Assembly (NCBI GenBank): GCA_020630065.1
Contig: JAHDCC010000016.1
Coordinates: 2,973 to 66,972 of the forward strand
Direction of reading: 5' to 3'
From: Acidimicrobiales bacterium
GTDB lineage: Bacteria; Actinomycetota; Acidimicrobiia; Acidimicrobiales; SZUA-35
DNA: 64,000 nucleotides
Position 1 is the stretch's first letter. Every line of letters starts with the position of its first letter. The position numbers and the translations under genes were made by a program. Below, piece by piece: positions 463-4,513 of this stretch. A model generated the notes under the pieces. The model did not search any database and was not told the origin of the DNA. It saw only the letters and a program-made list of their open reading frames with translations.

Positions 463-1484
463 GAAAGACAGCTGCGACCGTGGCGATACTTACTCTCCTA
501 CTAACATGCACGTCCACCGTTTCTTCAGCCCAGAACAACGACGTAAGCTTGGATGATTCCGACTCGTCGGAAGAGACGACAACGGATTTGGATTCTGGGT
601 CGGCGTTTATTGGGGTTGAGGAAGGGCCTAATGGGGATCGGGTGATTGTTGGTGTTGATGAAGTTAGGACGGGCGGCAGGAATAGTCGAAGCGTGCCGTC
701 TGATCTTGATTGTGTTTCTACCACGGCAATAGAGAACGATTTGGTTCAACCGGCGTACGGCCGACTAGGCGACTACGCCCTCGACGAAACAACCAACACC
801 GTACGAGAAAACATCCCACTGTACGGCAACGCCCCAGAAGTTGGGGTGGACAGCAAAGGGCGTATCGATGCTGAGACTGTGCTGGATGTTTTAGCGGTCC
901 GCCCGTCAGATGAACGCCTTTACTCACCAACCGGGCAATGGAACTACCTGTCGTGTGTGCGCGACGACGGGACGTTGGTGTTTGATCTTTTACCAGTGGG
1001 CGGCCCGGCAGTCAGCCTCTACGATTTACTGTTGCAAGGTTTAACGGCGATCGACCCGCCGATTCACGACTTCACTGTCAACCCGGTCGGGAAACAAGCC
1101 GTCCAGTTCCGGTCCCTGTTTTGGGTTGATCAGCAATATTGGAACACCGACCGTTCCACCACTGTCGGCAACGGAAACGTGTCGCTATCTGTCGCCCTGG
1201 TCCCGTATGAATCTGAATGGGATCCCGGTGACGGCTCCGACCCGATCATATGTGACGGCCCGGGCGAAGTATGGGAACGAGGAATGAAAGGCGAAACGTT
1301 CGACTGTAAACACACCTACCGGACAGTTAAAGGTCAGCCGTTCACGTTCACGTCAACGATCCGTTTCGAAATTCAGTGGAGCTCCAACTCTTCTGAAGTG
1401 TTAGGGCCGTTCTCGCCGTTAACCCGAGTTGACACGACAGAAGTCGGAGTTCGCGAGATTCAGATAGTTGAGAGCAATGCGTAG
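444..1484 (+). CDS. Secreted hypothetical protein
   Basis: 346 aa ORF with N-terminal signal-like hydrophobic segment (TAATVAILTLLLTCTSTVSSAQ); overlaps both neighbours, indicating an operon. Confidence 0.7.
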   Translation: MSRTSIRKTAATVAILTLLLTCTSTVSSAQNNDVSLDDSDSSEETTTDLDSGSAFIGVEEGPNGDRVIVGVDEVRTGGRNSRSVPSDLDCVSTTAIENDLVQPAYGRLGDYALDETTNTVRENIPLYGNAPEVGVDSKGRIDAETVLDVLAVRPSDERLYSPTGQWNYLSCVRDDGTLVFDLLPVGGPAVSLYDLLLQGLTAIDPPIHDFTVNPVGKQAVQFRSLFWVDQQYWNTDRSTTVGNGNVSLSVALVPYESEWDPGDGSDPIICDGPGEVWERGMKGETFDCKHTYRTVKGQPFTFTSTIRFEIQWSSNSSEVLGPFSPLTRVDTTEVGVREIQIVESNA

Positions 1485-1914
1485 CTGGTACAAACCTGCC
1501 GGTGTGGCAGGATGGTGGGAAAAGGTTACATCGGAAGACGGCGGATATATGTCGGTAGTTGCCGCCATGTTCGTAATAACGTTCATTGGATGTGTCGCCG
1601 TGGTAATCAACCAACACCAACATTTAGACGCGTTGGCGTTGGCGAGAGAAACCTCGTTTAACGCCGCCCGAGCCGGCGGGCAACAAATCGATGAAGGGTC
1701 GCTCGGCGCTGAAAACATTCCAGCGTTAGACCCGGAAGCGGCCGAACAAGCAGCCGAAGAAATAGTGGCCGCCGTCCCCGAAGTCAGTATTCAGGCGTTA
1801 GATGTAGACGAAACCGAAATAGTAGTCGTAGTCGAAATAACCGCCAACGGGATCTTGACTTCTAAAACGTTTAAAGCCACCGGACGAGCGACCGCTATCG
1901 ACCCAAACCGGTAA
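1468..1914 (+). CDS. TadE/TadG-like pilus-associated membrane protein
   Basis: Single N-terminal TM preceded by 'EDGGYMSVVAAMFVITFIG', followed by 'QHLDALALARETSFNAARAGGQQ', typical of TadE/TadG-like pseudopilin-like proteins. Confidence 0.6.
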   Translation: MRAMRSWYKPAGVAGWWEKVTSEDGGYMSVVAAMFVITFIGCVAVVINQHQHLDALALARETSFNAARAGGQQIDEGSLGAENIPALDPEAAEQAAEEIVAAVPEVSIQALDVDETEIVVVVEITANGILTSKTFKATGRATAIDPNR

Positions 1915-1981
1915 CCAGCCAACCTCGCCACACTGGTTTACGTGCCGTTAACCATCAGTTGGCACGCAAAACCTGCGATGA
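1878..1981 (+). repeat. Direct repeat copy 1 (~104 bp): 3' end of tadE-like gene plus downstream intergenic sequence
   Basis: caccggacgagcgaccgctatcgacccaaaccggtaaccagccaacctcgccacactggtttacgtgccgttaaccatcag... recurs at 3742..3845 with a few substitutions near the right end. Confidence 0.9.
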
Positions 1982-2046
1982 GAAGCAACGGCCAACCAGA
2001 CTGGGTTACACAATTTGACCACGACCCTTGAGAGTGAATGCAAATT

Positions 2047-2958
2047 CTACTTTTTTGTCCATATTTGTTCGTTGGGTTTCCAACGTTTAATATCCTCGTC
2101 GTTCAATAATGGGTTTAGCAGGTTAGCCGCCACGTCCATGGCTGCCTCCAGTGTTTGCTGTACCAATTGTGGAACTTTAGCTGCCTCTCGGGCATACCCG
2201 GTTTCCCAAGAGACATCAGGTGCAACTACTGCTGTTGGTTTGGCAAGTTTGCGATGAACATATTCGCTGAACAGCGCCGCTTGCAGTTCACTCGCCTCTA
2301 AAGAATGGTTGGTTGCTAATAGAACTAGATCGACAAGGTCTCGATACCGGCTGCTCGGTCGCTTTTCCAAACCATATGTGTCAATCATCGCAGCGTGCTT
2401 GTCAGCGATATGGTCAACAACTGAATAGACAACGTAGTCTGCGCTCGGGAGTCCAGGGATTGACACTGGCCTCAGTCCAGTCACAATGTCTGGTTCTTTG
2501 GTCATATTTGATGAAATTACTACGTCGATGTTAAATCGTTGGAACTCTTTGTTGCCGATGAAGGCAACCACGTCAAGGTTGACTCCAGTCGCTGCGTTGG
2601 TGAACTGTCTTCCGTTGGTCAAGATATCGAAGGTAAAGAAGTCCCCGAAGGTATCATCGGCAGCAAGATCCTGAATTTCGGCGACTGCTTCGCTCAGCTC
2701 ACCATCGTAGAACAAGTCAATATCCATACTGTGTCTCGCTTGATCTGGAATGCGAGCAAGTAACCCTCCACCACCCTTTAGTATCCACTGGTTGGGGCGG
2801 GAGGCAAACACTCGAACCAGTAGACGATCGTAGGCAAATTGGCGGCGAAGTTCAGCCATGCTATAGGTGCCTTTATTTGCCTGATCACGAAGACGATCTT
2901 TCAGTGCCGCATCAAACGAAGGGGGCGATTCATAGGGAAACTCTAACTCTTCACTCAT
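2047..2958 (-). CDS. abiEii: AbiEii-family nucleotidyltransferase toxin (type IV TA)
   Basis: Motif WILKGGGGLLARI...HSMDIDLFYDG matches the AbiEii/DUF1814 signature (KGG-x-L ... D-x-D); overlaps the upstream AbiEi-like gene by 4 nt. Confidence 0.85.
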   Translation of the reverse strand: MSEELEFPYESPPSFDAALKDRLRDQANKGTYSMAELRRQFAYDRLLVRVFASRPNQWILKGGGGLLARIPDQARHSMDIDLFYDGELSEAVAEIQDLAADDTFGDFFTFDILTNGRQFTNAATGVNLDVVAFIGNKEFQRFNIDVVISSNMTKEPDIVTGLRPVSIPGLPSADYVVYSVVDHIADKHAAMIDTYGLEKRPSSRYRDLVDLVLLATNHSLEASELQAALFSEYVHRKLAKPTAVVAPDVSWETGYAREAAKVPQLVQQTLEAAMDVAANLLNPLLNDEDIKRWKPNEQIWTKK

Positions 2959-3578
2959 TTCGAAGTTCCAAAGTCGACCGACATATCGACAAGAGCGGCG
3001 AATTCGCTAGTGGATACCCCAACGACGGAAGACACCTGTTCAAGACTTGTTACCCCTGCTTGTGTAGCGTCGTTAATGAACCGACCCAGATGCCCTCCAT
3101 CGACCCCAGCTGCATAAAGATCCGCCGCAGTTCTGTTCACATTAGTGACAGCGAAACCATCGACAACTGTCCAATCGGATCGAGGTATCCCGTCTGAGCG
3201 GCGGTAGACCTTCACTCCTGACGATGGTTGGAGTCGTAGTGAGCTGGTGAAGGTGGGCGTGTCGGCTAGAAATACTCCTAACCCATGGACCGAAGCGGCC
3301 GATTCATGCGACACCCAAATACTAGGACGGAGTACACGTTGGCGTGGTGATAGCTCTGGACGTAGCCGTAGCCACGCAACTCGGAGATCGCTAAGGTGAT
3401 CTTCTGGCGCACCTGCTACTCGGTAAACGCCGTGCCCGACCCGATGAATAAAGCCTTTAGATGCCGAACGGGTGAGGTCATAGTCAGCGATTCCTGTCTG
3501 CGACGCTTGAGCACGAGTAAAATAGCCTCGTTGGGCTTCCGGGATGTCTTCGAGTTGTTCAACGACGTTAACTGCCAT
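2955..3578 (-). CDS. abiEi: AbiEi-family antitoxin
   Basis: N-terminal winged-helix 'GYFTRAQASQTGIADYDLTRSASKGFIHRVGHGVYRVAG' typical of AbiEi antitoxins; directly upstream of the AbiEii gene. Confidence 0.85.
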   Translation of the reverse strand: MAVNVVEQLEDIPEAQRGYFTRAQASQTGIADYDLTRSASKGFIHRVGHGVYRVAGAPEDHLSDLRVAWLRLRPELSPRQRVLRPSIWVSHESAASVHGLGVFLADTPTFTSSLRLQPSSGVKVYRRSDGIPRSDWTVVDGFAVTNVNRTAADLYAAGVDGGHLGRFINDATQAGVTSLEQVSSVVGVSTSEFAALVDMSVDFGTSK

Positions 3579-3619
3579 ACTGCAAACCTTGCTACTGGTG
3601 CAACCTTTAAAGCACTATG
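3576..3619. promoter_or_regulatory. Degenerate second operator-like inverted repeat overlapping the abiEi start codon
   Basis: catactgcaaaccttgc (3576-3592) is a near copy of the left arm at 3638-3654 (2 mismatches); the right arm (gcaacctttaaagcactatg) is imperfect. Confidence 0.5.
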
Positions 3620-3637
3620 CATCTCCTGGCTTCGAAC

Positions 3638-3678
3638 CATACTGTAAAACTTGCCCTATGTGCAAGTTTTACAGTATG
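3638..3678. promoter_or_regulatory. Perfect 17-bp inverted repeat, candidate AbiEi operator
   Basis: catactgtaaaacttgc - cctatgt - gcaagttttacagtatg; perfect arms with a 7-nt spacer, upstream of the abiE operon. Confidence 0.8.
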
Positions 3679-3686
3679 CAACCATC

Positions 3687-3777
3687 CCAGCGTTAGACCG
3701 GAAGCGGCCGAAGAAATAGTGGCCGCCGCCCCCGACCCTGTCACCGGACGAGCGACCGCTATCGACCCAAACCGGTA
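3687..3777 (+). pseudogene. Decayed duplicate of the 3' end of the tadE-like gene (1468..1914)
   Basis: ccagcgttagac(c)cggaagcggccgaagaaatagtggccgccg...caccggacgagcgaccgctatcgacccaaaccggtaa matches 1720..1914 with internal deletions. Confidence 0.85.
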
Positions 3778-3845
3778 ACCAGCCAACCTCGCCACACTGG
3801 TTTACGTGCCGTTAACCATCAGCTGGTATACAGAACCTGCGATGA
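3742..3845 (+). repeat. Direct repeat copy 2 (~104 bp)
   Basis: Near identical to 1878..1981; its right end lies at the probable ATG of the aquaporin-like gene. Confidence 0.9.
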
Positions 3846-4513
3846 CAAACGACAAGATGATGCTGGCGAGAAAAGCGGCGGCCGAGTTCACGGGAACAGG
3901 CTTTCTATTGGCGGCCGTGGTGGGGTCTGGAATAGCGGCTGAAACATTAAGCGAAGATGTTGGCCTTCAACTATTTCAAAACGCCTTCGCTACCGCAGGT
4001 GTTTTAGCGGCGCTCATTTTGACCTTCGGTGTCGTATCGGGCGCCCATTTCAACCCGGTGGTTACCCTGGCCGAACGAGTCTTTGGAACAATCGACACCC
4101 AGACTGCGGTAGCGTACGTGATCGCTCAAACCAGCGGCGGCATCATCGGAGTGATCGTCGCCAACCTCATGTTTGACCTTCCCGCCGTTGACTGGTCGAC
4201 CAAAGACCGGTCCGCCGGACATCTCGTGTTCGCTGAAGTAATCGCCACCCTCGGACTCCTACTCGTCATTTTCGGGGTGGTGCGTTCAGGAAAATCTTCC
4301 GTCGTTGCGTTCTCGGTCGCCGGCTACATCGGTGGCGCCTACTACTTCACCTCCTCAACAAGTTTCGCCAACCCAGCGGTCACCATCGCACGAACCTTTT
4401 CCGACACCTTCGCCGGAATCGAGCCCGCTTCAGCGCCCGGTTTCATAGCCGCCCAACTAGCAGGAACCGTCATCGGGCTGGCCGTCATCTCGTTCATATG
4501 GCCTGAGAAATAG
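3842..4513 (+). CDS. MIP/aquaporin family protein
   Basis: Polytopic membrane protein with NPV (GAHFNPVVTLAE) and second NPA (SFANPAVTIART) boxes. ORF track start is 3806; the ATG at 3842 (MTNDKMMLARKAAAEFTGTG) is more plausible. Confidence 0.85.
   Translation: MTNDKMMLARKAAAEFTGTGFLLAAVVGSGIAAETLSEDVGLQLFQNAFATAGVLAALILTFGVVSGAHFNPVVTLAERVFGTIDTQTAVAYVIAQTSGGIIGVIVANLMFDLPAVDWSTKDRSAGHLVFAEVIATLGLLLVIFGVVRSGKSSVVAFSVAGYIGGAYYFTSSTSFANPAVTIARTFSDTFAGIEPASAPGFIAAQLAGTVIGLAVISFIWPEK

What the first reader, a model, noticed from the sequence alone, without database searches (positions are those of the whole stretch)
1720..3848. AbiE toxin-antitoxin module bracketed by a duplicated 3' gene end (scar of a small defence-cassette insertion)
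Seen: the last part of the tadE-like gene plus its downstream spacer (1878..1981) recurs at 3742..3845, and a degraded copy of more of the gene's 3' end begins at 3687. The only genes between the copies are abiEi/abiEii and their operator. Established: AbiE is a type IV TA/abortive-infection system, and defence modules often move. Inference: a ~1.86 kb TA-only cassette entered by target duplication or att-like recombination that preserved an intact host gene end. No integrase or transposase lies inside, so the mechanism is unknown. Copy 2 has diverged, suggesting the event is not recent.
Basis: partly seen in the sequence, partly recalled or inferred. Interest (0 to 1): 0.72.

Follow-up and report, generated by a model that had tools for sequence, protein, structure and literature searches.

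The report
Toxin-antitoxin cassette with duplicated insertion target
A two-gene toxin-antitoxin module (AbiE) sits between an intact gene end and a decayed copy of that same gene end, and about one in eight other AbiE modules checked in the same phylum is bracketed in a similar way, which suggests these modules can move as bare cassettes that duplicate the DNA where they land.

Summary
Window 1878-1981 recurs at 3742-3845 (99/104 identical). The match extends leftwards as a decayed copy of the tadE-like gene's 3' end (1713-1877 against 3680-3741: a frameshift, a 12-bp deletion and a roughly 85-95-bp loss). Between the copies lies only an intact, 4-nt-overlapping abiEi-abiEii operon with its operator palindrome: 1.69 kb, with no recombinase. 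The empty-site test could not be run because no same-genus genome is held. I instead surveyed AbiE loci across the phylum. Excluding the window, 13 of 98 have a strong direct repeat across the toxin gene (40-280 bp), against 0/73 aquaporin loci, 0/27 C5-methylase loci and 5/400 random spans (p=2e-7 against aquaporin plus random spans). Duplicated targets include tRNA 3' halves, a tRNA 5' end, 3' ends of protein genes and the start of hsdM. ParE (2/30) and PIN (3/30) toxins show it too, so it is not AbiE-specific. One Rhodococcus strain carries the same AbiE unit (97.6%) on two plasmids; AbiE-free relatives of one plasmid have a single copy of the repeat. Best reading: AbiE entered as a bare cassette with long target duplication, as described for restriction-modification genes. 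An integrase-type att origin remains possible for the window and likely for the tRNA cases.

The parts
1468..1914 (+). tadE-like gene (148 aa), intact host gene whose 3' end is duplicated
   Evidence: ORF; 71% paralogue at C8:211483-211854 downstream of Tad ATPase/TadB/TadC/TadE genes; no Pfam hit of its own
1713..1985 (+). repeat copy 1: gene 3' end plus spacer, intact
   Evidence: alignment with copy 2
1878..1958 (+). 81-bp core identical in both copies (counterpart 3742-3822)
   Evidence: longest perfect run, permutation P=0.0075
1935..1973 (+). hairpin after the tadE-like gene (probable terminator, no U-tract), stronger in copy 1 than in copy 2
   Evidence: RNA fold -14.6 against -9.1 kcal/mol for the counterpart; z -2.9 against -1.0
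1986..3679 (.). inserted unit: AbiE operon and its operator only, about 1.69 kb
   Evidence: boundaries of the two repeat copies
2047..2958 (-). abiEii toxin, nucleotidyltransferase
   Evidence: PF08843 2e-22; PADLOC AbiEii 4e-86; motif residues G62-G63, D79/D81, K187, R204/D207/D210 present, most invariant in 12 aligned homologues
2955..3578 (-). abiEi antitoxin/repressor; 4-nt overlap with abiEii
   Evidence: PF13338 1e-8; PADLOC AbiEi 2.5e-56
3638..3678 (.). perfect 17-bp inverted repeat with 7-bp spacer: probable AbiEi operator/promoter; a related half-site lies at 3577-3593
   Evidence: I5; sequence
3680..3849 (+). repeat copy 2: decayed 3' end of the tadE-like gene plus spacer, running into the aquaporin start
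3842..4513 (+). aquaporin (MIP family) gene; ATG at 3842 preferred over the GTG at 3806 that lies inside the repeat
   Evidence: PF00230 2.8e-26; homologues align from the region after 3842

Best explanation
An AbiE operon carrying its own promoter/operator was inserted, as a unit of about 1.69 kb, just downstream of the tadE-like gene. The insertion left about 270 bp of target (3' gene end plus spacer) on both sides, so the host gene stayed intact and the second copy, freed from selection, decayed. [quoted passage not shown] The most likely route is host recombination: incoming AbiE DNA carried, or was circularised with, a stretch homologous to the gene end. One crossover in the identical core would then give repeat-AbiE-repeat, leaving copies made of one native and one donor arm. 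Shown: the repeats, the AbiE-only content, the recurrence at other loci. Inferred: that it was an insertion, its direction, and the recombination route. The operon itself should act as ordinary AbiE: AbiEi represses its own promoter and neutralises a GTP-binding nucleotidyltransferase toxin.
For: Repeats hug the operon: 62 bp from the toxin stop, 99 bp from the antitoxin start. No recombinase lies between them, and none of the genome's three tyrosine integrases is on this contig. Similar brackets occur at 13/98 other AbiE loci, against 0/73 aquaporin, 0/27 C5-methylase and 5/400 random spans, p=2e-7 for AbiE against aquaporin plus random. Targets are unrelated, and the intact copy lies on either side: 3' end of a FAD oxidoreductase gene (L302, about 280 bp, 93%), start of hsdM (L278, 126 bp, 89%), 5' end of tRNA-Leu (L315, 123 bp, 98%), tRNA 3' halves. 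That variety fits target duplication better than one integrase. An identical 81-bp core with differing arms (P=0.0075) fits a crossover between two diverged versions. The same 1,990-bp AbiE unit sits on two plasmids of Rhodococcus DN22 in unrelated surroundings. At one of them AbiE-free relatives have one copy of the flanking 136-bp repeat where DN22 has two.
Against: No empty allele of this locus could be found, so polarity is inferred. Roughly half of the bracketed AbiE loci involve a tRNA, mostly its 3' part, which points to integrase-type attachment sites for those. The Rhodococcus case is not clean: the repeat belongs to a small family on those plasmids, and the 900 bp to the right of copy 2 also differ. 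The identical core might instead reflect constraint (terminator, aquaporin leader). The literature example is for restriction-modification genes, and C5-methylase loci in my sample showed 0/27.
Confidence: 0.55

Rival explanations
1. Attachment-site insertion: AbiE is the cargo of a small integrase-less element (CIME-like) that was inserted into the 3' end of the tadE-like gene by an integrase acting in trans, or is what remains after the integrase was deleted; the repeats are attL and attR.
For: Gene 3' ends restored by the repeat are typical att targets. Several AbiE modules in the survey sit between a tRNA and a 40-60-bp copy of its 3' half: L226, L262, L282, L212. In G083 the same tRNA end occurs three times: 32 kb before, just before and just after AbiE, as expected for accretion. 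L217 has three tandem tRNA-Val ends. CIMEs and accretion are described in PMC5704250.
Against: The window repeat is about 270 bp, longer than usual att cores. It is not in a tRNA and has no third copy in the genome. There is no integrase on the contig. No fixed orientation of AbiE relative to the target is seen across cases.
Confidence: 0.25
2. The gene end was tandemly duplicated first, or copy 2 is the remnant of a second tadE-like gene, and AbiE came in later or was trapped by a deletion; the repeats are not a product of AbiE insertion.
For: The genome does hold a second, paralogous tad locus. Copy 2 is already degraded. No empty allele is known.
Against: It needs two events, with AbiE landing exactly between the copies. 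The C8 paralogue is only 71% identical at protein level and shares no spacer. The same bracket at many other AbiE loci makes coincidence unlikely.
Confidence: 0.13
3. Assembly artefact or chance similarity.
For: The genome is a draft in 81 contigs, and no reads could be checked.
Against: Alignment score 230 against at most 34.5 in shuffles. The copies differ by indels and substitutions, which an assembler would not invent.
Confidence: 0.02

Closest known systems
Insertion with long target duplication of restriction-modification genes (Nobusato et al. 2000; Furuta et al. 2010; described in PMC1643837 and PMC3874152)
   Same: Small two-gene addiction module, duplicated target in the order of 100 bp or more on both sides, variable unrelated targets, no transposase
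   Different: Cargo is a type IV toxin-antitoxin module, not RM; no empty allele is available here; copies already decayed. PMC3874152 describes this mode for RM and, in the passages read, not for TA modules
AbiE type IV toxin-antitoxin / abortive infection system (Dy et al. 2014, PMC3985639)
   Same: Antitoxin-toxin gene order, winged-helix AbiEi, DUF1814 nucleotidyltransferase with the conserved motifs, inverted repeats in the promoter
   Different: Nothing notable in the operon itself; the interest is in its borders
CIME: cis-mobilizable element with attL/attR but no integrase (PMC5704250)
   Same: Direct repeats that preserve a gene 3' end, no integrase inside
   Different: Repeat about 270 bp, no neighbouring element with the same att, target not a tRNA
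Homology-facilitated illegitimate recombination (PMC3240628; invoked for orphan immunity gene arrays in PMC5361080)
   Same: One-sided homology can add foreign genes next to a retained or displaced gene end
   Different: Documented mainly in naturally competent bacteria and in E. coli conjugation; not tested for this organism

Membership tests
AbiE type IV TA system | abiEi upstream of abiEii in one operon | tested here: met
   ORFs 2955-3578 and 2047-2958 on the minus strand overlap by 4 nt
AbiE type IV TA system | AbiEii with nucleotidyltransferase motifs I-IV | tested here: met
   PF08843 2e-22; GG x15 DxD at 62-81, K187, R204/D207/D210 present
AbiE type IV TA system | AbiEi with winged-helix N-terminal domain | tested here: met
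   PF13338 1e-8, PADLOC AbiEi 2.5e-56
AbiE type IV TA system | Inverted repeats in the promoter | tested here: met
   Perfect 17-bp arms 3638-3654 / 3662-3678
AbiE type IV TA system | Toxicity neutralised by AbiEi; phage resistance | not testable with these tools
   needs bench work
Insertion with long target duplication | Unit flanked by a direct repeat of the target, on the order of 100 bp | tested here: met
Insertion with long target duplication | Empty allele with a single target copy in a relative | not testable with these tools
   no same-genus genome held; no tadE-aquaporin junction in other species. Partial analogue in Rhodococcus plasmids
Insertion with long target duplication | No transposase or integrase in the unit | tested here: met
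   integrases only on other contigs
Insertion with long target duplication | Described cargo is a restriction-modification system | tested here: not met
   cargo is AbiE
CIME | attL and attR recognised by an integrase | tested here: inconclusive
   repeats present, but no cognate integrase or third copy
CIME | No integrase or transfer genes inside | tested here: met
Composite or unit transposon | Transposase with terminal inverted repeats or flanking IS | tested here: not met
   none between or at the repeats

The most novel reading that the evidence does not exclude
Small toxin-antitoxin operons as a class (AbiE, and apparently PIN/VapC and ParE) are bare mobile units that insert with long, variable target duplications by a common mechanism, as proposed 25 years ago for restriction-modification genes, rather than being carried only as passengers of integrase- or transposase-bearing elements.
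Probability: 0.25. Interest if true: 0.8.

Novelty: new variant of a known kind. Interest (0 to 1): 0.55.

Why it matters
How TA modules spread when no mobile element is visible is an open question. A border signature that marks over a tenth of AbiE loci gives a way to find insertions, reconstruct empty sites and test mechanisms in species with many sequenced strains. It also shows that these insertions spare the neighbouring gene by duplicating its end.

Tried and rejected
Same-genus empty site: none in the held genomes or in GTDB r220 contigs (best aquaporin 79%, no tadE next to it). Family-level tadE and AbiEii hits are too distant (37% and 48%). The repeat flanking other cargo in the own genome, viral contigs or plasmids: none. 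Copy 2 as derived from the C8 paralogue: rejected, it matches only over 35 bp. Promoter/terminator scan: nothing above chance. AbiE-specific enrichment: rejected as too strong, since ParE 2/30 and PIN 3/30 are similar. Furuta 2010 itself is not held, so its content is taken from PMC3874152. The Rhodococcus case as a perfect empty/filled pair: rejected, because the right flank also differs.

Full report
What is there. The tadE-like gene (1468-1914) ends in a stretch that recurs downstream. A gapped alignment joins 1713-1985 with 3680-3849. It contains an 81-bp core identical in both copies (1878-1958 and 3742-3822) that spans the last 12 codons, the stop and 44 bp of spacer. Left of the core, copy 2 has lost one base, 12 bases and about 85-95 bases of the coding part. 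Right of the core there are several substitutions in the last 25 bp before the aquaporin start. The score is 230 against at most 34.5 in shuffles. Copy 1 keeps a hairpin after the gene (-14.6 kcal/mol) that copy 2 has largely lost (-9.1).

Between the copies. Only abiEi and abiEii are present, on the minus strand with a 4-nt overlap, with the catalytic and AbiE-specific motif residues in place. A perfect 17-bp inverted repeat lies upstream of abiEi, in the place and style of the AbiEi operator described in PMC3985639. Copy 2 of the host repeat begins two bases after that palindrome, so the unit is the transcription unit and little else: 99 bp beyond the antitoxin start and 62 bp beyond the toxin stop.

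Direct test not possible. The genome is a draft of an acidimicrobial actinobacterium, the only held member of its genus (its nearest named matches are Acidimicrobiales and Ilumatobacteraceae MAGs). None of 80 aquaporin loci from other species has the tadE-like gene beside it. The tad segment is itself a paralogue of a fuller tad locus on contig C8. Whether an empty site exists in relatives therefore stays open.

Survey. I fetched AbiE loci from samples of about 400 genomes of the class and about 400 of the phylum, found by similarity to this AbiEii (set 1) and by PF08843 (set 2), and searched for direct repeats with one copy on each side of the toxin gene within 1.5 kb. At 60 bits or more, set 1 gave 7 of 41 including the window and set 2 gave 7 of 58. 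Aquaporin loci gave 0 of 73 with a similar rule, C5-methylases 0 of 27 and random spans in the same loci 5 of 400 from three loci. AbiE without the window, 13 of 98, against aquaporin plus random, 5 of 473, gives p = 2e-7. Other toxins are not clearly lower: ParE 2 of 30 and PIN 3 of 30. The trait looks like one of small TA modules rather than of AbiE alone. For 14 cases examined, some of them below the 60-bit line, the unit between repeats is 1.7-2.5 kb and the operon fills most of it (a few operon limits, as in L226 and L302, are approximate).

Targets. L302 duplicates about 280 bp of the 3' end of a FAD oxidoreductase gene, L278 the first 126 bp of hsdM, L315 the 5' end of tRNA-Leu and its upstream region, L273 and L292 the very end of a tRNA and its downstream region, L226, L282 and L262 a tRNA 3' half, and L216 a tRNA-Asp 3' half plus 155 bp. 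The intact copy can lie on either side of AbiE. tRNA 3' halves of 40-45 bp are classic integrase attachment sites. In G083 the AbiE unit is the outermost of two intervals delimited by the same tRNA end, 32 kb and 2.2 kb long, as in the accretion of elements described in PMC5704250. Others, such as the hsdM start, the tRNA 5' end, the FAD oxidoreductase end and the window, do not look like attachment sites and match long target duplication as described for RM genes (PMC1643837, PMC3874152). I therefore think two routes feed the same picture.

Strain-level evidence. Rhodococcus sp. DN22 carries the same AbiE unit (1,990 bp, 97.6%) on two plasmids with unrelated surroundings. On p4 it is flanked by a repeat of about 138 bp. 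Related plasmids without AbiE (L393-L397) have one copy at that place, which aligns to both DN22 copies (94% and 84% for L393). Two cautions apply: the repeat also occurs elsewhere in those plasmids, and the 900 bp to the right of copy 2 are variable.

Mechanism for the window. The identical core between differing arms (permutation P = 0.0075) is what a single crossover between a resident gene end and a donor's already degraded gene end would leave: each copy is half native and half donor. Plain duplication followed by drift predicts evenly spread differences. Selection on the core is a possible alternative, so this is weak evidence. No integrase gene is on the contig and the site has no third copy. 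I put long target duplication by host recombination at 0.55, an att/CIME origin at 0.25, and a prior local duplication at 0.13.

Novelty. The operon is ordinary AbiE. The border is a new variant of insertion with long target duplication, with a TA module as cargo. The literature I could search reports this mode for RM systems. Small variable segments flanked by repeats are common in bacterial genomes, but most of those repeats are under 30 bp (PMC2884548).

Noticed in passing
L143 (G000 C8:203000-215844): A second, fuller tad locus carries paralogues of the three genes at 124-1914 of the window, in a different order (tadE-like, then orf124-like, then orf444-like).
   Followed up: partly
G083 C1:1816481, 1848722, 1850944 (L212): Three copies of a tRNA-like 3' end delimit a 32-kb interval and a 2.2-kb AbiE-only interval: tandem accretion next to what is probably a tRNA-Met gene.
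   Followed up: partly
L217: 1603-1675, 3982-4026, 7574-7617: tRNA-Val followed by two further copies of its 3' 45 bp, delimiting two cassettes in tandem, the second with AbiE.
   Followed up: no
L196: 1927-1980 and 3978-4031: A 54-bp hairpin-forming sequence repeated exactly about 2 kb apart near an AbiE locus; possibly a small dispersed element.
   Followed up: no
L278: 4918-6336: AbiEii toxin apparently fused to a WYL domain, placed directly before hsdM whose first 126 bp are duplicated on the other side.
   Followed up: no
L346: 130-230 / 1190-1290 and L413: 1376-1419 / 2684-2727: ParE and PIN toxin loci bracketed by near-perfect direct repeats (99% over 101 bp; 100% over 44 bp), similar to the AbiE cases.
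   Followed up: no
L202: 112-1254 and 2984-3167: A tyrosine integrase gene directly upstream of AbiE, with a 72% copy of the integrase gene's own 3' end on the far side.
   Followed up: no
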